Translations under genes and position numbers: made by a program | From: Physcomitrium patens | Taxonomy: Eukaryota > Streptophyta > Bryopsida > Funariales > Funariaceae | Length of the DNA stretch: 64,000 nucleotides | Assembly: GCF_000002425.4 (NCBI RefSeq) | Contig: NC_037256.1 | Span: 18,159,982 to 18,223,981 of the forward strand | Direction: 5' to 3' | Notes under the pieces: generated by a model | Told to the model about the DNA's origin: nothing | The model's input: only the letters and a program-made list of their open reading frames with translations | Databases searched by the model: none | Part shown: positions 6,277 to 57,085 of the stretch, one piece after another | How the letters are laid out: each line of letters begins with the position of its first letter | How positions within the stretch are numbered: the stretch's first letter is position 1

Positions 6277-6806
6277 TGACAAGGACAAAAATTTAGTGAA
6301 TGCAAATAAATAAGTAGAATCTTTGTTAAAGAAAGATGGAAAAAAAAAATGTATATTCAAAAAAAATGAAATGGCTATTGCTAAAAGATAAGAAAACTAG
6401 AGACCCTTGAAACTAGATTAAAAGTAAAAAAAGAATTAATAAGAGTGAAAAAGGCTTCATTCTTGCCTCTATGTATACTATCTAATTAGAAGTAATATTC
6501 TATAGGACCTCTAATATATGTCCAACTTGTAGAACATGCATCTATCTTGCAAGATAAGCTTCCAATATGTGTACCACATATCCAACTTGTACCACAAGTC
6601 AGCAATATGCGCGATATGAGGCCAACTTCTCAATTAAATTTTCAACCTATCAATCAATTATAGACATATTTAAAGCCAAAGCTACATCTATATAGCTTCT
6701 AAGAAGTTCTTTTATAAGATATTTATAATTTTATTTTCTTTTTATCTACTTTTATTTATTCATATTATCTATGTAATTATTAGAATAAATATGGATGTCT
6801 ATGATA
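6277..6806 (-). repeat. Solo LTR of the E1/H family, inverted
   Basis: Reading the minus strand, this matches the E1/H LTR from its first bases (degraded TGTC...GACAT at 6806) through the TATA/hairpin zone near 6460 to the CTTGTCCTTG end at 6277. It lies head to head with the H 5' LTR, with only three bases between them. The flanks attat and atttg are at best a partial target duplication. Confidence 0.75.
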
Positions 6807-6809
6807 ATT

Positions 6810-7006
6810 TGTCACAGACATACATATTTATCCTAATAATTATCTAAATAATAAGAATAAGTAGAAGTAAGTCAAAGTAAATAAATATGATAATATCTTG
6901 TGGATAGCTTCTTAGAAGCTTCATAGATGCTACTTTGCCTTTACATGTCTATAGGTGATTGATAGGTTGAAAACTTGGCTAACAAGGAGGCCATATGTTG
7001 ACATGT
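6810..7006 (+). repeat. H 5' LTR, left segment (interrupted by E1)
   Basis: Begins TGTCACAGACATAC, like the E1 LTR start. It is cut at 7006 by the E1 insertion and continues at 14196, with CATGT duplicated at both junctions. Confidence 0.8.
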
Positions 7007-7567
7007 TGTCACGGACATACTCATGTAAGCTAGTAATTACATATATAAATAGGTAGAAGTAAGTAAAAGTAGATAAAAAAAAGATAATTTTATAGTATTT
7101 GATATGGAAGCTTCCTAGAAGCTTAATAGATGCTACTTTGACTTTATAGGTATCTTTAATTGACTTTTTGGATTAGAAACGTGGTCAACAAGTTGGCCAT
7201 GTGCCAGTTATGTTGTTAGCTTGAAGACCAAGCTAACAATGTGGCCCACATGTAGAAAAACTTGTCTTATAAGTCAAGGCATGTGTCTTATAAAGTCAAC
7301 ACATATTGAAGGTCCTATAAAACGTTGCCACGTGGCCCCTAGTTAGATAGTATATATAGAGACAAGAGTGAAGCCTTCTTCACTCTTATCAACTCTTTTC
7401 TTGTTTCTAGTCTAGTTTCAAGAGTCTTCATGTTTTCTAGTCTTTAGCAATAGCCATTCCAATTTTTCTTTCAATATATATACTTGTTTATTTATATTTT
7501 CTTACCTTTCTTTGAGTGAAGGCTCACTTGTCTGAATTGCTTTTTCATCGAGTTCTTGTCCTTGACA
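7007..7567 (+). repeat. E1 5' LTR
   Basis: 561 bp, TGTCACGG...CCTTGACA, so it ends in TGTCA/TGACA-like inverted termini. It holds a TATA box and a hairpin just upstream of the predicted transcript start. Confidence 0.93.
7351..7392 (+). promoter_or_regulatory. E1 LTR promoter: TATA box, hairpin and predicted transcript 5' end
   Basis: TATATATAGA starts at 7351. The arms GACAAGAGTGAAG and CTTCACTCTTATC (7361-7390) form a stem with a four-base loop. The 11-mer ACTCTTATCAA at 7382-7392 starts 31 nt after the TATA start, where plant transcripts usually begin. The E1 3' LTR has the unmutated form ACTCTTGTCAA at 14005-14015, which pairs perfectly with the site at 7570-7580. Confidence 0.65.
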
Positions 7568-7569
7568 GA

Positions 7570-7580
7570 TTGACAAGAGT
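7570..7580 (+). other. E1 primer binding site, apparently of self-priming type
   Basis: TTGACAAGAGT lies two bases inside the LTR. It is the exact reverse complement of ACTCTTGTCAA in the 3' LTR (one mismatch to the mutated 5' LTR). It does not begin with TGG, as sites complementary to tRNA 3' ends do. The same offset of two bases is seen in E3, E4, E5 and H. Confidence 0.7.
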
Positions 7581-12832: not shown

Positions 12833-14190
12833 TATCATGGACATACTCATGTAAGCTAGTAATTACATATATAAATAGGTAGAAGTAAATAAAGATAGAT
12901 AAAAGAAAGATAATTCTATGATATTTGATATGGAAGCTTTCTAGAAGCTTCATAGACGTTGCTTTGACTTTATAGGTGTCTTTAATTGACTTTTTGGATT
13001 AGAAACGTGGTCAACAAGTTGGCCATGTGCCACACATGTTATTAACTTGAAGACCAAGCTAACAATGTAGTCCACACGTAGAAAAACTTACCTTATAAGT
13101 CAAGGCATGTGTCTTATAAAGTCAACACATATTGGAGGTCCTATAGAACATCACCACATAGTTCTTAATTAGATAGTATGTGTGATTGCTCGTTTTACTT
13201 ATTTCGGAAGAAACCTCTTAGAATAAATCCGTATAGGGAGATTCAAACACAGAGAATGACTAGTTGCTTAAGCGTTCATGTTAGGATCAGACAATCAATT
13301 ACCTCCTGAATGTATCGTCTCTATTTCCAATATCTGAACACACAAGGAAACTATAATCTCCTCCTTCACCTTATCGGTCTTTTTCTTATAGTAATTCAGT
13401 CATACCAATAACTGCTATTTCTACTAATATATTCACCCTCATAATCTCCAACTGTAATACTACGCCCTCATAGCTTTCAGCACACAATTATCCTCGTTCC
13501 AATCACTGGAATTCTTCACACAAAACTGCCATTCACATTACAATATTTCGCACAAACATAGACTCATTCTCTCTGTTGAACTACAATCAAATTTCAGCAT
13601 TCAATCTTTCTTCTTCTCAAATAATATCAATCACATTTCTATTCCATAATTCACTTCACAATATTCAGAAACTCTCAATCATCTTATTCAAAGAAAATAA
13701 CAAACAAAAGAAAAGAGGTAGCACCAAGCTTATCCCGGCTCACAACTATCGCAGCGATGGCCCTCGGCTCATGACTATCACAATCTGGCATCTTAATTAA
13801 CTTCTACAACTCTTATATACTTTTCCCTGATTTTTCAGATTCTAACCGTAATTCTTTAATTAACCACTTTTAATAACTAAATCATTCATCTGTCCTCCTG
13901 AATTTCCTATTATATGAATTATTAATATATTTTACTAATATCTTTCAAAAACGAATTAATATCTATTCTATAGTATGTATAGAGACAAGAGTGAAGCCTT
14001 CTTCACTCTTGTCAACTCTTTTCTTGTTTCCAGTCTAGTTTCAAGAGTCTTCATGTTTTCTAGTCTTTGGCAATAGCCATTCCAGTTTCTCTTTCAATAT
14101 ACATACTTGTTTATTTATATTTTGTTACCTTTCTTTGAATGAAGGCTTACTTGTCTGAATTTTTTTTTCATCAAGTTCTTATCCTTGACA
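12833..14190 (+). repeat. E1 3' LTR, split by a solo LTR
   Basis: Segments 12833-13180 and 13978-14190 total 561 bp, the same as the 5' LTR. The LTR starts TATCATGG where the 5' LTR has TGTCACGG. Confidence 0.9.
13181..13972 (-). repeat. Solo LTR of the E2 family
   Basis: A 792-bp copy of the LTR at 15371-16161, inserted in the E1 3' LTR. GTATG is duplicated at 13176-13180 and 13973-13977. The termini are TGTGATTG and TCTATA (TCTACA in the other copy). Orientation is taken from a minus-strand TATA box (AAGTATATAAG near 13821) and from the purine tract beside the other copy. No internal sequence remains, so it reflects LTR-LTR recombination. Confidence 0.85.
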
Positions 14191-14195
14191 CATGT

Positions 14196-14589
14196 TAACC
14201 ACTTGTAGTATAAGTAAGACATATGGTGCATACTTATGAAACTTGTCTTACAACTTAGACATGCATCTTGTAAATTGGACGTATATTAGAGGTCTTATAG
14301 CATATCGCCACATAGTTCTTAGTAAAGAAATATATATAAAGATAAGAGTGAGGCCTTTTTCACTCTTATCAACTCCTTTCTTGCTTTTAGTCTAATTTCA
14401 AGAGTCTTATGTTTTCTAGTCTTTGGCAATAGCCATTCGACTTCTTCGTTGAATATACATACTTTCTTCTATTTTGTTACTTTCTTTTTGATATAGATTC
14501 TATGAGTTTATGTATCTTCTTCTAGTTTGTATCCTTAACATACAAATTCGATAAGTTTATGTATCTTCCTCTAGTTTGTATTCTTGATA
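14196..14589 (+). repeat. H 5' LTR, right segment
   Basis: Continues the LTR cut at 7006. It has ATATATAAAG then GATAAGAGTGAGG, and the 11-mer ACTCTTATCAA at 14362-14372. A duplication of about 40 bp (TTATGTATCTTC...TAGTTTGTAT) makes it slightly longer than the E1 LTR. The end is TTGATA where E1 has TTGACA. Confidence 0.75.
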
Positions 14590-14793: not shown

Positions 14794-15370
14794 ATGGCAT
14801 AGCTTGCTGAAATGAAAAGTGCAATGACTCAAATGTAAGAACAAATGAGAGAGTTAATGCTAGCAATATATCAACTTTGTCTACCACCACAAAGAGCAAT
14901 AAGATTATCGAGCAATGAAAATATAGAGATGATTGGAGTTACTTCAACATTTACACCAAACCATATCACTGCTCCTACAATGAAACATCGTTCAAGTTTT
15001 AAGGAACCAAAAATTGAAATACTTAAGAAGTTTGATGGCACAAGATGTAAATTTTGAAGATTTATCAATTGGGTATAATTGGTGATTGAACTACAATCTC
15101 AAATTTATCCAACTTAAGGATCACAAGTCAAGTTTATTAAAATACTACTTTCAAGTTCTATTTTATCATAGTTTTTATCATTTCTTGAATGACGTGATTC
15201 AATATTGGATAATTTGGGAGTATTCTTACTACAATTTCAATCTATGTATGGAGAATATGATGCAATCTGTGTTCCAACCAACAAGATTCATATCTTGTGA
15301 TAAGATAATTGATCAATGATATTATACACTTTATAATTTTGACAATTAGTAACAGATATTATGTGGGATG
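14794..15370 (+). pseudogene. H gag, N-terminal part (broken)
   Basis: ATGGCATAGCTTGCTG matches the E1 gag start. The core LKKFDGTRCKF is recognisable near 15035. Many stops interrupt it, and it ends where the E2 LTR inserted. The rest of gag is missing, lost with the insertion. Confidence 0.75.
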
Positions 15371-16161
15371 TGTGATTGCTCGTTTTACTTATTCTGAAAG
15401 AATCCTTTCAGAATAAACTCGTATAGGGAGATTCGAACATGGGGAATGACTACTTGCTTAAGCGTTCATATTAGGATCACACAATCAATTACCTCCTGAA
15501 TGTATCATCTCTATTTCTAATATCTGAACACACAAGGAAACTATAATCTCCTCCTTCTCCTTATCGGTCTTTTCCTTACAGTAATTCAGTCATACCAATA
15601 ACTGCTATTTCTACCAATATATTCACCCTCATAATCTCCAACTGTAATACTACGCCCTCATAGCTTTCAGCACACAATTATCCTCATTCCAATCACTAGA
15701 ATTCTTCACACAAAACTGCCATTCACATTACAGTATTTCACACAAATATAGACTCATTCTCTCTGTTGAACTACAATCAAATTTCAGCATTCAATCTTTC
15801 TTCTTCTCAAATAACACCAATCACATTTCCATTCCATAATTCACTTCACAGTATTCAGAAATTCTCAATCCTCTTATTCAAAGAAAATAACAAACAATAG
15901 AAAAGAGGTAGCACCAAGCTTATCCCGGCTCATACTATCACAGCGATGGCTCCCGGCTCACGACTCTCACACTCTAGCATCCTAATTAACTTCTGCAACT
16001 CCTATATACTTTCCCCTGATTTTTCAGATTCTAACCGTAATTCTGTAATTAACCGCTTTTAATAACTAAATCACTCATTCGTCCTCTTGAATTTCTTATA
16101 ATATGAATTATTAATATATTTTACCAATATCTTTCAAAAATGAATTAATATCTATTCTACA
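15371..16161 (-). repeat. E2 LTR (3' LTR by orientation)
   Basis: 791 bp, about as long as the solo copy at 13181-13972 and closely similar to it. The plus-strand ends are TGTGATTG and TCTACA. A minus-strand TATA box (AAGTATATAGG near 16010) and the purine tract at 16162-16180 place the element's body to the right. The flank GGATG at 15366-15370 has no partner, because the other end of the element is missing. Confidence 0.8.
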
Positions 16162-24922: not shown

Positions 24923-24945
24923 ATTTTATGTTAGTTTCAACAAAC

Positions 24946-25407
24946 TATTAGGGACCATATACAAGACAAGGATTCAAGACCAAGAAATGGAGTTCGCTTG
25001 ACATTAGAAAAACAATTGGATACAAGGCAAGAAGGTCCTAACTAGATCACAAGAAGTAAGTTGTCGAGAGCGAGGATCTCTTCAACCTTGACTCCTATAT
25101 ATACTAGGTCCTAAAAAACTTCTTGAAAAGTTTCTATGAAGCTTGGAAATAAAGCAAGCCAAAGATCCTTCTTCGACAACTTCCTAGATCATCCAAAGCC
25201 TCTTAGAACCTTCTAAGATTTCCTATGACCTTCTAAAACTTTCTTAGAATTTATTCAAACTTTTTGGAACCTTCTTAGAATCCACAAGAATCTTTTGGAA
25301 CTTTCTAGAACCTTTTAGAACCTTCTAGAATCTCCTAAAATCTTCTAGAGCCTTCTTAGATTTTATTGAAACTTTTTAGAACCTTCTTCAGTTATATGTC
25401 TATGACA
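24946..25407 (-). repeat. E5 5' LTR
   Basis: Plus-strand ends TATTAGGGACC and CTATGACA. Minus-strand TATATATAGG is followed 32 bases on by GCTCTCGACAA. The inner site at 24933-24943 reads TTGTTGAAACT on the minus strand, a decayed partner for that 11-mer. Confidence 0.85.
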
Positions 25408-31850: not shown

Positions 31851-31861
31851 AGTCTTGACAA
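31851..31861 (-). other. E3 self-primer binding site
   Basis: Minus-strand TTGTCAAGACT, two bases inside the LTR, pairs with AGTCTCGACAA of the 5' LTR (31991-32001) at 10 of 11 positions. Confidence 0.65.
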
Positions 31862-31863
31862 TT

Positions 31864-32337
31864 TGTCACGGACCAAAAATACCAACAAGAAATCTAAACA
31901 AGAAGTTCAAGAAGAAATGACAAGAACTAGATTATCAGATGAGTACAAGAGCAACGCCAAGAGAATTGAGCTAGAGCTTCAAGAAATGTGTTGTCGAGAC
32001 TGAAGAACTCTTCAGCCTCGACTCCTATATATACTACTGGCCTATGGTTCTAAGGAAGCGCATCAAGAAGCTTCCCAAGAACTATGAAGCTTCTCGAGCA
32101 ACTATCCAAGAGCTAGGAAGCTTCTCAAGTAACTTCCTAGAATCTACTAGAATATTCTAAGAATCTTCTAGAGCCTTCTAAGGGAATCTTTAGGGAATCT
32201 TCAAAGAATCTTTAGAGAATCTTTAAAGAATATTCTAAGAGAATATTCAAGGAATCTTCTGGAAGTTTCTAGAGACTTCTTTCTAGAAGGTTCTAGAAAC
32301 TTGTATCTAGAAAGGTCTAAGGACTATGTCCCTAACA
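31864..32337 (-). repeat. E3 5' LTR with promoter
   Basis: 474 bp. Minus-strand TATA box AGTATATATAGG at 32024-32035. An almost perfect hairpin occupies 31993-32022. The predicted transcript 5' end AGTCTCGACAA starts 32 bases after the TATA start. Confidence 0.9.
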
Positions 32338-38976: not shown

Positions 38977-38987
38977 AGTCTCGACAA
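38977..38987 (-). other. E4 self-primer binding site
   Basis: Minus-strand TTGTCGAGACT, two bases inside the LTR, is the exact complement of the E3 5' LTR 11-mer AGTCTCGACAA. It has one mismatch to E4's own LTR (AGTCTCTACAA at 39117-39127). Confidence 0.65.
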
Positions 38988-38989
38988 AC

Positions 38990-39386
38990 TGTCATGGACA
39001 CAGAAATACAGACTCGAGATCTAAGAAGAAGTTCAACAAGAATTGGCAAGAACTAGATTAACCAGATGAATACAAGAACAACACTAGAGAGGTGAGCTAG
39101 AACTCCAAGAGATGTGTTGTAGAGACTGAAGAACTCTTCAGCCTCGATTTCAATATATACTCCTATTTAGGAAGCTTCTCAAGCAACTTCTACCAACTAG
39201 GAAGCTTCTAGAAGGTTTAGAGACTTGCTTCTAGAAGGTTCTAGAAACTTATCTCTAGAAGGTTCTAAGGACTATGTCCCTAACATCTTCTACCAATTAA
39301 GAAGTTTCTAGAAGGTTTTAGAGACTTGCTTCTAGAAGGTTCTAGAAAATTGTCTCTAAAAGGTTCTAAGGACTATGTCCCTAACA
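38990..39386 (-). repeat. E4 right LTR (E3 type) with internal duplication
   Basis: TGTCATGG...CCCTAACA. The last stretch of about 100 bp, ending GGACTATGTCCCTAACA, is present twice (to 39283 and to 39386). Confidence 0.8.
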
Positions 39387-39654: not shown

Positions 39655-41154
39655 TCATTTCTTATTCAATGGTTGATAGTCCTCATCATCATCATCATCA
39701 TAATCTTCAATATCTTCGTTTCTTTCATTCTTATTCCTAGAAATTATAAGAGCCTTCATCTTTTCAACTTTCTTTGGCTTTTCATCTTCATCATCTTTAT
39801 TATCTTCATCTTCATGTTTCTTTGTTGAATTCAAAGATGTGACTACTATCACACCATTACTCCTACTTGGACACATCTCCAAGTGCTCACAAGCAGTCTT
39901 GAACTCCAAAAACTCAACATCACGACTTTTGATGATCTTCTAAGTTTCCAAGCACATTAGCTTATACACCTTAGTTTCTTTACAATAACCAAGAAACACA
40001 CACTTTGGACGTTTTGTATCAAGTTTTGACCTCATGTAATCTAGTATTTTTACACATGCAATATAATCAAAGGCCTTCAGATGAGAAATGCAAGGTTGTC
40101 TCCCACTCTAAGCTTCGTGTAGTGTCATTGATGAAAGAACACTTCTTGGACACCTATTTCTTATATACATTGCTTTCACTACAGCTTCCGTCCAAAACTC
40201 ATAACCAAGGTATTGAGCATAAAGCATGCTCCTTGTCATCTCTACAATGGTTCAATTTACCCTTTCAATAACACCATTTTGTTATAGAGTGTATCGAATT
40301 ATGGCTTGTCTAACAATTCCTTCATTCTTCAAATAAACATCAAATTGCTTAGACATGTACTCATCTCCATTGTCCGTATGCAGCACCTTGATCTTGCATT
40401 CACTTTTTTTCTCAACAAATACTTTAAACTCCTGAAACCTCCAAAAGCATTCAATCTTGGCTTTAAGAATGTAGATCTAAATCTTTCTTAAATAATCATC
40501 AATGAAAGTAAGAAAATAGCTTGATCTTCCAATACTTGTGTTCTTCATAGGTCCACATACATCAGAATAGACAATCTCGAGTAACTTGGTAACACGTGTT
40601 GCTATGCTATTTGGAAATGAGGCTTATTATTGTTTGCCTTATATGTATCCTTGACATACAAGTTATTTTGTATTTTGGCTTGTATTACCAAGATCTAAGC
40701 CACTTATCACAAACTTGAGCTCTTTCATACTCTTTACATTCAAATGGCCAAGGTGATGATGGCATATATTCAACTTATTTTGATTTGATGTAAACTCAGG
40801 AAATGCAGCTATCTCCACTCCATTCACCTTTTTACAAATGAGGTAGTACAAATTTTCCTCTCTAAAGCCTTTAAAGACCTTGTCTCTACTCAATGTTCTT
40901 ACAAAACATCCATTTATGTCAAATTGAACTTTAAAACCTTCCATTACAAGTTTATTCACCGAAAGTAGATTTTGCTTCATCATAGATATATGAAAGATGT
41001 TTTTAAATATGATTCTATTGGTTTGTCCATTCACAACCACTTCCACCATAATAGAGCCAATTCCAATGGCTTTACATGTACCATTATCCGCCAACACCAC
41101 ATTTGATATTGGAATAGCCTCATAAGTGTCAAATAAACACTTATAAGGTGCCAT
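39655..41154 (-). pseudogene. Copia integrase and GAG-pre-integrase domain (broken)
   Basis: 163 open codons (40663-41154) contain the pre-integrase finger ICHHHLGHLNVKSMKEL. The integrase core follows in pieces with VYSDVCGPM, HTDNGDEY and a QNGVIERVN box near 40270-40600. 39655-39909 encodes an acidic linker (EDYDDDDDEDYQ). A protease-like stretch WIIDSSYSNHM lies just upstream near 41160-41190, with the DSG triad changed to DSS. Confidence 0.8.
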
Positions 41155-41279
41155 ATGATTGGAATAACTTGAATCTATAATCCATCTTTACATGGCAGCC
41201 ATAGAAGTCCCATTTGTTGCCATGAATACATAATCTTTTCCTCTAAACTTATCTTGCACATTATTTGCATTCTCCTTCT

Positions 41280-42020
41280 CTAATTTTTTGCCTTTGTAGT
41301 AATTTCAAGCAAAATGGCCTACTTTGCCACAAATGAAGCAAGATTTGATATTACCTCATTGATTTGAATAATTGCCCTTGCCTTAATATAAGTAGAGTGT
41401 TGAATCTTCACTTTGGGTCTTTTTTTTTTTTCTTTTTGGTTCCTTCATAGATAAGTCTTGTTGTCACATAATCCATTGTAAGCTCTTTTAGCTTAATGGA
41501 CTCCAATGCCATAATGAGGTAGTCGTAGGATTTGGAAAGGCTCACCAGCAAGGTCATGACAATATCACTTTCTTCTAAAGGCTTATCAATAATTGCTAGT
41601 TGGTTTGTAAGAGCCTTTACCTTATTGATATGAACTATGAGGTCTTCTTCTTCTTCTTTTTTTATCTTACAAGTGAAGAACTTCTTCCTTGTATAGATGA
41701 TATTGGATAAGTTCTTCCTCTTATAGATATTGCAAAGAGTCTTCCATGCTTGTGCTGGTCCTTTATAAGAGATAATGTGGGAGAAATTGGCTTCATCTAC
41801 ATTGGTTGCAATCAATCCAAAAGTATTCTTTTCACGATGTTTGAACTCTTTCTTCTCTTTTATATCAGCATCTATGCTTGGACTTTCTTCACTTTTATCT
41901 ACAATATTCCAAAGATCCAAAGATGCCAACAAAAGCTTTATTTTTACCTTCCAATGGTAGAAATTTTTATCTGTGAACTTTTCAATTACTCTCAATCCTT
42001 CACCCTCACTTGAAGCTATG
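41280..42020 (-). pseudogene. Copia gag (UBN2/retrotran_gag type)
   Basis: 195 open codons (41408-41995) with FTDKNFYHWKVKIKLLL, LWNIVDKSEESPS and AWKTLCNIYKRKNLSN, typical of copia gag. A CCHC-like knuckle remnant (CFICGKVGHFA) is near 41310-41340. The reading frame runs upstream of 41995 to about 42016. The C-terminal Lys run comes from a T tract at 41420. Confidence 0.8.
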
Positions 42021-48058: not shown

Positions 48059-51000
48059 ATGGCACAAGGTAAAGGTAATTCTGTTCAACGACGACGACAG
48101 AAAGCTGAAGGAGCTGTTCCTATCAGTGCTGCTGGCGAAGGAGGTGGCGAAGGACCTCGGGCAGGTCCATCACTATCCGGACCAGTCGGACGTTGTGAGG
48201 TTAGAGCGGTGACTGTGCCGAAAAAATCATTAAGACCAGGATATGGTCGAGCAGGGCGTGGGACACTGCTTGGCGTGAATTACTTCAAGACTTCATTGTC
48301 GAAGAGAGTCGATGTCCATCATTACAATGTTTGACCACTTTGCCCACTGAGCCAACCTACAGCTAACGAAAAGTGGGTCTTTTTGTGCGTCATGGTCTTG
48401 CATTCTGAATGGGATAAAGTTGTCTTGTTTACCAGACCGTTATTTCGGATTTTGAAGCCAATCAGAAGACTTTATTATTCTATCCACTCCTACCACTTCA
48501 CAATTTGAATGTAACATTCGATATGGATTTAAATTTTGAGACGTTTGTAAAATGCCGTTTCTACACAAGTTTTGATTGAAGTATCTCCATCGCGCTGCCC
48601 GCATTTGACAATTTCGGCCCGTTGTCAGCAAGTAAAATCGGTAACCCATGCCTGCAGGTTTCAATCGAGCCGGAAACCGTGAGCAAGAGGATGTGCCGTG
48701 AAATAATGAAGAAGCTCCGCGAAACATATGGAAACGAATATTTTGATGGTAAACATGGAGCGTACGATGGAGAAAAATCTCTGTTTACGAGTGGGTGTTT
48801 ACCGTTCAAGTCAATGAAGTTTTCAGTACTCCTGGACAATTTCGAGGGTTCCTCATGTAGACCTGGTGACAGTGGAAGACCGAGTTCAGGTACGAAGTGC
48901 ATAGCAAATCGATTTACGATATCCACTCGTCGTGGCATTTGTGCTGAACGTCATTCATTTGTCTTACTAAATTGCTCCTTACCTGTGGTGCAGCCAGTCG
49001 TAGAGCAGAGCCTCTCTCACAGAGAAGGGCTCCATCCAAAGTTAGGAAATTTGATGTTTCAATTGAGTTGGCTGCAAAGATTCGGATGGATGCGATAGAG
49101 GAAATGATGAAGAGAGCGCTGGGTAGGTGTGATCAGGAGCTACAAGATCGAGCGCTGGACGCTCTACGTGTTCTGGACGTTATACTCCGTGAAATTGCTT
49201 CAAGAAGGTAGACTAAATGCGACTCCGCATTTGTCATGAGCAAGCAGTCGTGTTTTCAGTCTACATTCCGTAAGATGGCATTTGCTTATTTTTGCAGAGG
49301 CTACCTGCTTGTGAGAGACAATTTCTTCCATCCGAGTTTGGGTCAAGTTTGCGATTTGGGCGATGGTGTGGAAGGTTGGAGGGGTTATCACTCCAGCGTG
49401 AGACCGACGCTGATGGGATTGATGTTAAATTTAGGTGAGTAGAGATCGTACTCAGTCACTGACTCCAAAGAAAATGTGGTTTGTCTCATTTCGAAACAGA
49501 AAAGTTTTACTTTGATCAGTTCCGGCGTCAATGGTCATTGCTGTCCCTTGAAGTGATTTCGTAATATATTCTGCATCGTTGCCCTGGGACATAGTACTGA
49601 CTGGTTTGTCCAATTGCAACAGATACCACTATGACGGTGGTACTGAAGCCTACTCTGGTTGATGAGTTTCTCAAGGAAAGGTTCAATGTAAGAGACCTGT
49701 CTGGTTTGCAGAAAAGAGATTGGGCTAAAGCGAAGGACATGTTGAAAAACGTCAGAATAGAAACGACTCACACGGGAGTGTCCCGAAAGTACAGAATATC
49801 GGGCTTCAGTGATCGGTCCATACGAGAATTAAAGTGAGGATAGTGGTCACGAAGTATTTTATTCAGCTTCACTATTGCTGAGTGTTGTGGTGTTGTCGAA
49901 TATGTAATGAATTTCCATTCGACTGAACATGCAAAGTGACCTCTAAGGACGTGATTTGATTTGGTGCCGATGCAGGTTTATGAAGGGGACGAAAGATGGG
50001 AATGGGGAGGAGGAAATTTCAGTATATAATTATTTTTTTGATACTTACTCGCGCAAACTAAAAAACCTAAATTTTCCAGCGCTGGATCTTGGAAACAGCA
50101 GGAAGCCAATATACATGCCCATAGAAGTAATGTCTGCGTTTCCTCGCCCAGTTTCTAATTTTCCTGCCGACAGTTAGAGTTGGTTATCTTTCATATTTCC
50201 TTGCGTGGTCCACTGGTGTTTCATTCGTCAGTGTTTGTATTTGTTCTTCTGACCGCAGTTGTGCAAGATAGTTAGTGGACAGCGCTATACCAAGCCGCTG
50301 TCCAGCAAGCAGAGGATGGCACAAATCGGTGCAAGCAAGCAGGCGCCGCAAGAACGACAAAAGATCTGTGAGAATGTGTGTAGAAATTACACCAGATGAC
50401 TTGCAGTATCCTACAGAATGTGTTGAGTTGTAGCCTCGAATTCCCCATTGACTGTAGTATTTGTCTTATTTCATGACCAGGCGCTCAAAGTTTGCAACTA
50501 CAGCTCCGACAAGCTGATTGCGGAGTTCGGTTTACAATTTGATAACAAGCTTGCGTCCGTTTCTGGCAGAGTGCTACCTGCCCCTCAGGTATGATTGTCA
50601 ACACGTTCGCTTTGATATAATTTCCCACATCACCAGTGAGTGTTCCTTGCATCAGGATGTAAAGAACGACTCATCCCAAGTGGTATTGTTTTCTCGTGTG
50701 AGGACAGCTCGACTTTGGAAATGGAAAGACCGAGGAGCCCAAAGAAGGGCGATGGAATTTCAACCACAAGGTGTTTCAAGTTCGCTCTTAGGAATGCATT
50801 GCGTGTTTTCTCTAAAGGCTTAGCCCACTATGGCGAAAGGATTTTATCTAATGCAAGTCCTGCTTGTCCCTTGCAGACCTTGAAAAAGGGAGTTACGATA
50901 GCCGCTTGGGCTGTAGCTGTGTTCGACCCCTGCTGCAATGATGGAGATCGAATCGCATTCCAGTTGATAGAGAGTTGCAGCCGACGAGGCATGGTGATGA

Positions 51001-55009: not shown

Positions 55010-55437
55010 TTTCTTGTTTTTGGTAGTAGCCATTCTAGTATAATACTATATCATCTTTGAGTGATTTTTTAGTTCTTTTGAGTGATAGAAGAGTTTATTG
55101 AGAATTTCTTTCTTTAAGATTCATATCCTTAAAAATTTGACAATAGTGCTAATTCATTATTCTTGTCTTGTTTTAGAAGTGAGTAAATTATCTCACTTCT
55201 ATTGTTATATTTTGTAGGTTGTGGATTATCTACCTTTAAACAAATTGTTTAGTTTTTTAACACTCATTTTTTCTTTAAAGAAAGCAAACTATCTTTTTTT
55301 GTAGAAACTTTCATATGATATTAGAAATTATAGATTATCTTTCTCTAATTTGACTTGTAGTTTTTTGAAGTTTTTTAAAATAAAAAAAAGATCATAGATG
55401 CTTTACTTAGTAGGAGTGAGAATAGATTTGTCCATAG
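55010..55437 (+). repeat. E6 duplicated LTR end, leader and gag start
   Basis: The stretch TTTGACAATAGTGC ... GTGAGAATAGATTTG repeats, with divergence, the sequence at 55774-56065. It includes the inner primer site, the leader and the first gag codons. Then it jumps back into LTR sequence. Confidence 0.6.
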
Positions 55438-55984
55438 CTTACAGAACAACCTAATTATATGTCATTTATATAAAAAACTTGCATTGCAAGTTAAGATATG
55501 TGTCTTATAAAGTCAACATGTTTAAAATATTCTATAGGATATCACAACATAGCTTTTAGTTAAGAGTATATATAGAGGTAAGAGTACATCCTTCTTCACT
55601 CTTATCAATGCTTTTTTAATCCTTAGTCTTGTTTTAAGACTTTCTAGTCTTCTTGTCTTTGGTAATATCCATTTTAATTCAATATACTACCTTCTTTAGT
55701 AATTTTTTAGTTTTTTGAGTGATACAAAAGTATATCAAGGTCTTCTTTTTTCGAGATTCATGTCCTTCATAATTTGACAAGAATGCTAACTTATTGTTCT
55801 TATCTTGTTATAGAAGTAAGTAGATTACTCCATTTTTATTGTTGTATTTTGAAGGTTTCAAATTATCCACATTTAAATAAACTATTTAGTTTTTTAACAC
55901 TGATTTTTTCTCTAAAGAGAGAAAATTATCTTTCTTTGTAGAAATTTTTATTTAATTTTAGAGTTTGCAAATACCTTCTTCTAA

Positions 55985-57085
55985 TTTGACTTGTAGATTT
56001 GTTAAGTTGTTTGAAATAGAAGGAAAAAATATAGATGCTACACTTAAAAGAAGTAAGAATAGATTTGCAACTATTACAAATCTTCACAAATTTGTTGATA
56101 CTCTTAGAATAGAAAATTCATACATCACGAGTGCCAACTATGGAAGTACTAATCCTATGCCTATGAAAAAAGTTTAGAATCTATGTCAAGAAGTTGTGCA
56201 ATTGAAAGAAACAAGTAGATCAACTTCTTAACCAAATTCAAAAAATTTCGCTTGTAAAAGTACAATGGAGATACAGATTAGTATGCTTTATAAGTTTCAT
56301 GGAACAAGATCAAAATTTTGGAAATTTCTATAACAAGTGAAGTTCTATCTAAGTTTGCATCTCTTTTAATACCTTGATGGATTTACTCAAATTAGATTTA
56401 AAGATACACTTTTATTTAGAAGTATTTTTTTTATTTGCACTGTTAATATAAAAAGATTTATAAATCTTTTATGATTTGAATTTATTCTTAGAAGTGTTTA
56501 TAACTACATTTGAAAATAGTGATTAAAAAAGAATAGTAAAAATCAAGCTCTTATCTTTACATCAAGAATTGTGATTAGCTACCATATATGTTGTTGAATT
56601 CCAAAATCTAGCTTGTAATATAAATTAGTATGACAAAGCCTTTATCAATCAATTTTAATATAGATTGAAGGATAATGTCAAAGAATTATTATTAATAATG
56701 CCAAAAATATTGTTTGTGATAATTTATTGCTTAAGCCATTATATGTAATAATTGATTATTTAAAAGGAATTAAGAACAAAAACTTGGTTGAAGAAGAATA
56801 AGTCAAGTAATGATGGCAGCTCACAAGTTTTCAAAAATTTATTTATCAAGGCTAGAACAAATGTAATATGATACAATATGTTTTATATCTCTCACTGAGC
56901 AAAGAAAGATTTGATATTGTCAAGAAGGCTTGTGCTTATATTATAGAGAAGCTAAGCACATTGCTCAATATTATCCAAAGAAACAACACAATCACAACAT
57001 AAGGAGTATAATTGCCAAAGAAGACAATGTATCAAAAAATAAGTTTTTCCAGCTTTAAAAAAGATTGTGCAAGTAGAAACATGTG
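55985..57085 (+). pseudogene. E6 gag (broken)
   Basis: LYKFHGTRSKFWKFL near 56285 matches the gag core of E1 and E3. CLYYREAKHIAQYYPKK near 56935 is a decayed zinc knuckle with two of three Cys lost. It ends where the inverted R element begins; protease is missing. Confidence 0.65.

What the first reader, a model, noticed from the sequence alone, without database searches (positions are those of the whole stretch)
7351..7580. Tf1-like self-priming signature in a plant chromovirus-type family
In E1, H, E3, E4, E5 and E6 an 11-nt site begins two bases inside the LTR (E6 offset less certain). It is complementary to an 11-mer that begins 31-32 nt after the LTR TATA box, the expected transcript 5' end. 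E1: TTGACAAGAGT with ACTCTTGTCAA (3' LTR), 11 of 11. E4: TTGTCGAGACT with AGTCTCGACAA of the E3 LTR, 11 of 11. E3: 10 of 11. H: TTGATAAGAAT with ACTCTTATCAA, 10 of 11. E5 and E6 are more decayed. The two subfamilies use different 11-mers, but each matches its own partner, which argues for co-variation. None begins TGG, so tRNA priming is unlikely. Self-priming with an 11-nt 5' end is known for yeast Tf1 and proposed for its relatives. I do not know of a plant case.
Basis: partly seen in the sequence, partly recalled or inferred. Interest (0 to 1): 0.92.

Follow-up and report, generated by a model that had tools for sequence, protein, structure and literature searches.

The report
Self-primed moss retrotransposon with start-site hairpin
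This jumping-gene family appears to start copying its RNA into DNA with the RNA's own first 11 or 12 letters instead of a transfer RNA, a mechanism already predicted for moss relatives, and its start site also carries a paired hairpin that co-varies with that primer and that I did not find described.

Summary
E1's PBS (7570-7580) lies 2 nt inside the 5' LTR and is complementary to an 11-mer 31 nt after the TATA box: 10/11 in its own 5' LTR, 11/11 in its 3' LTR. Genome-wide, 3612 matched sites of subfamily 1 and 1638 of subfamily 2 occur; none of 9 cross-pair sites is a real PBS. Of 18 subfamily-2 5' LTRs not picked for their PBS, 15 match 11/11 and 3 match 10/11. Self-priming is the best explanation. 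It is not the first plant case: Neumann 2019 (PMC6317226, passages) predicts it for moss and club-moss Tcn1 chromoviruses, and RT and chromodomain of a relative fit that group. New to me is a hairpin of 11-13 pairs with a 4-nt loop straddling U3/R. Its right arm holds primer nt 1-9, and its left arm co-varies with primer and PBS in both subfamilies; the same arrangement recurs in 5 of 6 related elements from other sources. I propose that it hides the 3'-LTR copy of the primer sequence, so that only the true RNA 5' end can prime. No RNA data were available.

The parts
7007..7567 (+). E1 5' LTR (TGTCACGG...CTTGACA), 5-bp TSD CATGT at 7002-7006
7351..7358 (+). TATA box of E1 5' LTR, 31 nt before the primer
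7361..7390 (+). U3/R hairpin: left arm 7361-7373, 4-nt loop 7374-7377, right arm 7378-7390 (end of U3 + primer nt 1-9); one mismatch in this copy (-12.8 kcal/mol)
7382..7392 (+). Proposed self-primer, expected RNA 5' end (ACTCTTATCAA, 10/11 to PBS)
7568..7569 (+). 2-nt spacer GA between LTR end CA and PBS
7570..7580 (+). PBS TTGACAAGAGT
12833..14190 (+). E1 3' LTR, interrupted by a repeat insertion at about 13178-13970; followed by TSD CATGT 14191-14195
13984..14013 (+). U3/R hairpin of E1 3' LTR (13 pairs, -19.0 kcal/mol)
14005..14015 (+). 3'-LTR copy of primer sequence ACTCTTGTCAA (11/11 to PBS)
14362..14372 (+). H primer 11-mer ACTCTTATCAA
14592..14602 (+). H PBS TTGATAAGAAT (10/11)
31851..31861 (-). 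E3 PBS TTGTCAAGACT (subfamily 2, 10/11)
31991..32022 (-). E3 5' LTR hairpin and primer AGTCTCGACAA (primer 31991-32001)
38977..38987 (-). E4 PBS TTGTCGAGACT (subfamily 2)
39117..39127 (-). E4 5' LTR primer AGTCTCTACAA (10/11)
24933..24943 (-). E5 PBS-like site TTGTTGAAACT (7/11, decayed)
25061..25071 (-). E5 5' LTR primer 11-mer GCTCTCGACAA
55598..55608 (+). E6 primer 11-mer ACTCTTATCAA
55774..55784 (+). E6 PBS TTGACAAGAAT (9/11)

Best explanation
E1 and its relatives are Tf1/sushi-group (Tcn1-type) chromoviruses that start reverse transcription by self-priming. Transcription starts about 31 nt after the TATA box. The first 11 (or 12) nt of the RNA fold back onto the PBS 2 nt inside the 5' LTR. 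RNase H of the element's RT cuts behind them, and that end primes minus-strand DNA. The PBS of each new copy is rebuilt by copying the primer, so primer and PBS stay Watson-Crick complementary. A hairpin of 11-13 pairs with a 4-nt loop straddles U3/R. It can form only where U3 precedes R, that is in the 3' LTR of the RNA and in read-through RNA, not at the true 5' end, which lacks the left arm. It would hide the 3' copy of the primer sequence from the PBS. Shown: sequence complementarity, spacing, co-variation, predicted hairpin stability. Inferred: the RNA 5' end, the cut, the copying, the masking role (about 0.4 for masking alone; the stated confidence is for self-priming).
For: Matched sites 3612 and 1638, control 0 each. 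Cross pairs: 9 sites in the union; 7 show an inverted subfamily-2-type LTR end joined to subfamily-1 U5 in the listing, and the other 2, read in full, are oppositely oriented LTRs: 0 true cross pairs. Of 39 usable subfamily-2 LTRs not picked for their PBS, 18 are true 5' LTRs: PBS 11/11 in 15, 10/11 in 3; the 21 others match 0-6 of 11. Of 31 related contigs, 6 carry exact 11-12 nt primer/PBS pairs with a 2-nt spacer and TATA 31-34 nt before the primer, with three further 11-mers; own pairs 11/11, foreign pairs 3-8 of 11 except between near-identical 11-mers. Tf1 uses 11 nt (PMC7175516, passages). Hairpin z -3.5 to -7.0 in 7 of 8 tested (two share the same 35 nt), and -19.8/-21.0 kcal/mol against -14.4/-16.2 for the primer:PBS duplex. 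RT tree, chromodomain.
Against: No RNA 5' end was measured. The free fold of the leader does not choose primer:PBS pairing (z 0.0), though enforcing it costs only 0.7 kcal/mol in L009 and nothing in E4. The two flanking duplexes of the Tf1 'pretzel' do not reach the top 5% of shuffles in any of the 11 elements tested. The length is not fixed at 11: G follows the PBS, giving 12 pairs, in 8 of 18 subfamily-2 and 5 of 23 subfamily-1 junctions. Of the 31 contigs, 22 show nothing and 3 (L068, L069, L070) only a one-mismatch match of the kind seen in controls; 14 distant contigs (best RT segment at most 62% identical) with at least 1800 nt before the RT match show no exact pair. L043 has the primer/PBS pair but no hairpin. 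The two subfamilies are one comparison, not thousands of independent events.
Confidence: 0.85

Rival explanations
1. The primer is a tRNA or tRNA fragment, and the LTR match is coincidence.
For: Most plant chromoviruses use tRNA-Met, and half-tRNA primers exist in plant copia elements (PMC6317226, passages).
Against: No PBS seen starts with TGG. Four clearly different PBS sequences each match their own LTR exactly. The match stops at 11-12 nt and lies at TATA +31/32. A direct comparison with this genome's tRNAs was not done (requests 123, 125, 127 did not complete).
Confidence: 0.05
2. The 11-mer pairing closes the RNA into a circle or packages it, and is not the primer.
For: The same 11-mer also lies in the 3' LTR, so PBS to 3'-LTR pairing is possible; 5'-3' cyclisation of yeast elements is recalled, not looked up.
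Against: The site sits at the PBS position (2 nt after CA). The 3' copy is predicted to be locked in a hairpin more stable than the duplex.
Confidence: 0.07
3. The hairpin is a DNA feature (a dyad at the start site, for a transcription factor or for initiation), unrelated to priming.
For: It lies between TATA box and expected start, and a dyad there could bind a factor.
Against: Subfamily 2 has G at stem position 7 in 39 of 39 arms, a G.U pair in RNA but a mismatch in DNA. In the related contigs pair 11 reads G-C, G.U and A-U (L044, L047, L067). These are few events, and C-to-T decay adds noise.
Confidence: 0.3

Closest known systems
Tf1 of Schizosaccharomyces pombe (and Tj1, Tosmo elements)
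   Same: First 11 nt of the Tf1 RNA pair with the PBS; chromodomain; PMC7175516, PMC4600332, PMC10085805 (passages).
   Different: The flanking 'pretzel' duplexes of Tf1 are not supported here. A U3/R hairpin is not mentioned in the passages seen. Pairing here is 11 or 12 nt. No cleavage data here.
Tcn1-clade chromoviruses of mosses and club-mosses
   Same: Non-seed plants, close to the fungal Tf1/sushi group, self-priming predicted for most (PMC6317226, passages).
   Different: The passages seen report the prediction without subfamily co-variation or a hairpin. Its supplement could not be read, so I cannot say whether this very family is listed.
RLG1 of Physcomitrium patens
   Same: Dominant chromodomain gypsy family of a moss genome; 5092 complete copies (PMC7466625, passages) against 5250 matched sites here.
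   Different: Identity not proven: G000 is unnamed and no RLG1 sequence was available.
Vertebrate Tf1/sushi-type elements
   Same: Same RT group: named frog and fish sequences 52-58% identical.
   Different: Different hosts; priming not compared here.

Membership tests
Tf1/sushi self-primed group | PBS complementary to the expected 5' end of the element's own RNA | tested here: met
Tf1/sushi self-primed group | RNA 5' end located exactly at the 11-mer | not testable with these tools
   only TATA spacing (31-32 nt) is available
Tf1/sushi self-primed group | RNase H cut between nt 11 and 12 releasing the primer | not testable with these tools
   RNase H domain is encoded by L009; pairing is 11 or 12 nt; no biochemistry
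Tf1/sushi self-primed group | Flanking duplexes of the 'pretzel' structure | tested here: inconclusive
   best case reached by 29 of 300 shuffles, in 11 elements
Tf1/sushi group (phylogeny) | RT groups with fungal/vertebrate chromoviruses, apart from seed-plant ones | tested here: met
   branch 100/99, 23 rows; few named references, no Tcn1 or Tf1 sequence itself
Chromovirus | Chromodomain after integrase | tested here: met
   PF00385 and Tf2-1-like SH3 in relative L009; not tested separately in E1
tRNA-primed plant chromoviruses | PBS complementary to a tRNA 3' end (TGG...) | tested here: not met
   all start TTG; no tRNA set searched
RLG1 of Physcomitrium patens | Sequence identity with RLG1 | not tested
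   no RLG1 sequence or genome name available

The most novel reading that the evidence does not exclude
Self-primed chromoviruses of non-seed plants carry a co-varying U3/R hairpin that permits priming only from a correctly started RNA 5' end and hides the identical sequence in the 3' LTR: a built-in check of the transcript start, kept while the primer sequence itself drifts.
Probability: 0.35. Interest if true: 0.7.

Novelty: new variant of a known kind. Interest (0 to 1): 0.5.

Why it matters
In plants, self-priming rests on sequence predictions in the papers I saw. Thousands of copies in one genome, plus related families with different 11-mers, make the co-variation test strong. The hairpin raises a question that can be tested directly: how does a self-primed element tell its 5' primer from the identical sequence in its 3' LTR?

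Tried and rejected
Pretzel duplexes: no support. Viral contig scans for relatives: none confirmed. Rfam on the window: no match at gathering score. Naming the genome through gag homologues: the only organism-named rows among the 120 listed are the fern Ceratopteris. Relaxed search (10-mers, no TATA needed) of 16 contigs without an exact hit: 7 complementary against 7 reversed-control matches, so nothing. Controls: 23 complementary rows (shifted duplicates included), 2 reversed, 36 same-sense rows (which I take to be direct repeats). One search also listed repeat-made matches in L065, 637-669 nt away, which I set aside. I first took L017 and L018 for tandem elements; rereading they are single minus-strand elements. 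A first script over the 40 LTRs failed and was redone. Mended on recheck: 'exactly 11 nt' became 11 or 12.

Full report
What is there. The window lies in an unnamed 470-Mb genome (G000:C4). E1 is an LTR element with its 5' LTR at 7007-7567, a 3' LTR split by an insertion, and a perfect 5-bp TSD. Its PBS at 7570-7580 follows the LTR end CA after 2 nt. The complementary 11-mer starts 31 nt after the TATA box. Match counts for the elements in the window are: E1 10 and 11, H 10, E3 10 and 9, E4 10, E5 7 and 6, E6 9 and 9, of 11.

Beyond the window. TTGACAAGAGT occurs 10188+10291 times in the genome against 64+59 for the reversed control, and TTGTCGAGACT 3648+3629 against 38+47. Primer and PBS at the right distance: 3612 sites for subfamily 1 and 1638 for subfamily 2, controls 0. 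These patterns are their own reverse complement, so each site is counted once here; a few may be oppositely oriented LTRs. Cross pairs: 8 places and 8, 9 distinct; the two patterns are reverse complements of each other apart from one middle base, so they test the same thing. Seven show an inverted subfamily-2-type LTR end joined to subfamily-1 U5 in the listing; the other two were fetched and read in full and are oppositely oriented LTRs. So none is a mismatched primer-PBS pair.

Sample not picked for the PBS. From the list (TATATATAG plus exact subfamily-2 primer; 1115+1149 sites, control 0) I took 40 LTRs: 29 of the last 30 listed, leaving out one known nested site, and 11 from 9.4-10.8 Mb. 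None of the 40 was in the list as shown, which works against perfect pairs in the second group. One (L130) was fetched on the wrong side. Of 39, 18 are true 5' LTRs followed by a leader: PBS 11/11 in 15 and 10/11 in 3, each of the three being one C-to-T or G-to-A change at the CpG; spacer GT in all 18. Within the first group alone it is 12 and 3 of 15. The other 21 are 3' or solo LTRs, matching 0-6 of 11; four of these passed the script's loose leader test, and I assigned them by eye. An earlier set, partly selected on the 11-mer, gave 46 rows: 31 at 11/11, 9 at 10/11, 2 at 9/11, and 4 lower, of which 3 look like false anchors and one (L021) is a PBS-like site without a good primer; 5 further rows had no TATA and were dropped.

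Length. In E1 and L009 complementarity stops at 11 nt. Where G follows the PBS it is 12 nt, since C precedes the primer: 8 of 18 subfamily-2 junctions and 5 of 23 subfamily-1 junctions with exact primer and PBS. The start may thus lie one base earlier in some copies.

What kind of element. Relative L009 encodes gag, protease, RT, RNase H, integrase, a Tf2-1-like SH3 domain and a chromodomain. Its RT groups with fungal, frog and fish sequences and apart from Tanacetum and the long-branched alga Closterium (100/99, 23 rows). Among the 120 best pol homologues listed, named fungal and vertebrate ones are 52-59% identical, Tanacetum 44-48%; among 120 gag homologues the only organism-named are from the fern Ceratopteris, 49-50%. 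This fits the Tf1/sushi-Tcn1 group. That is inference.

The hairpin. Between TATA box and primer lies a left arm complementary to the end of U3 plus primer nt 1-9. Both subfamilies can form 13 pairs with a 4-nt loop, -19.8 and -21.0 kcal/mol, against -14.4 and -16.2 for the primer:PBS duplex. In the 39 subfamily-2 LTRs the fold has 13 pairs in 20, 12 in 15, 11 in 2 and 10 in 2. E1's own 5' copy has a mismatch (-12.8), its 3' copy none (-19.0). Three positions differ in step in PBS, primer and left arm between the subfamilies. At stem position 7 subfamily 2 has G in 39 of 39 arms (and in every arm listed, by eye), pairing G.U with the primer, while the PBS has A in 18 of 18. L037, outside that sample, has A there, a changed stem end and still 13 pairs. 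So the arm is not a copy of the PBS, and wobble is tolerated in the hairpin but not in the PBS. That is expected if the PBS is rebuilt by copying the primer each round and the hairpin is kept by selection on RNA.

Other organisms. A scan of bacterial-genome contigs gave 31 loci that look like eukaryotic contaminants. Six carry exact primer/PBS pairs with a 2-nt spacer: L042, L043, L044, L047, L048, L067; three (L068, L069, L070) have only a one-mismatch match that looks like chance; 22 have none. Among contigs whose best RT segment is at least 63% identical, with at least 1800 nt before the RT match, it is 6 of 7 (L046 is the miss); among 14 more distant ones (L049-L051, L053, L055, L058, L059, L064, L065, L068-L072) there is no exact pair (tabulated by me). 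Three further 11-mers occur. The hairpin recurs in 5 of the 6, with 11-13 pairs and a 4-nt loop, ending at primer nt 9; L042 has the same 35 nt as subfamily 2. Stem pair 11 reads G-C, G.U and A-U in L044, L047 and L067. L043 lacks it (z +1.2). The Trichormus sample may come from the fern Azolla; that is recalled, not tested.

Mechanism. Self-priming explains the place, the length, the strict complementarity and the co-variation. The 2-nt spacer fits the dinucleotide that integrase trims (recalled from retroviruses). The hairpin cannot form at a correctly started 5' end, because the left arm is not transcribed there. It can form in the 3' LTR (z -3.3). I therefore propose that it masks the 3' copy. 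A role at the first strand transfer, 2 nt from the landing point, or in the promoter is not excluded.

Against. The free leader fold does not show primer:PBS pairing; enforcing it costs 0.7 kcal/mol in L009 and none in E4 (the E3 value there is not meaningful because of its mismatch). Pretzel duplexes were not supported in 11 elements. No tRNA comparison was possible. Independent changes are few: two subfamilies here and three 11-mers elsewhere, two of these one base apart.

Known or new. Tf1: first 11 bases pair with the PBS, cut between 11 and 12 (PMC7175516, passages). Tcn1 of Cryptococcus: self-priming proposed (same). Plant Tcn1 clade: self-priming predicted (PMC6317226, passages). For the club-moss SM-Tcn1, Novikova 2010 found neither tRNA priming nor self-priming (PMC2864245, passages). 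Searches for palindrome, hairpin or inverted repeat together with self-priming terms (listings) and passages of two candidates showed no description of the U3/R hairpin; most subscription papers are not held. Hence: new variant of a known kind.

Noticed in passing
window 48622-49095 (+): An open frame matches the N-terminal domain of Argonaute (PF16486) amid retrotransposons; gene or fragment not determined.
   Followed up: no
window 13178-13970 and 15368-16159: A repeat of about 793 bp (93% identical copies) is inserted both in the 3' LTR of E1 and in H.
   Followed up: no
L042-L072: Bacterial genome records hold eukaryotic-type Tf1/sushi retroelement contigs, probably contamination; the Trichormus set may come from a fern (recalled).
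   Followed up: partly
window 40663-41995 (-): Copia-type gag and pol fragments.
   Followed up: no
window 6341-6976: Inverted LTR fragments related to the E1 LTR lie just upstream of E1.
   Followed up: no
window 55137-55147 and 55774-55784: E6 has two PBS-like sites about 640 nt apart within a repeated stretch (55011-55430 and 55650-56067), a duplicated 5' end.
   Followed up: partly
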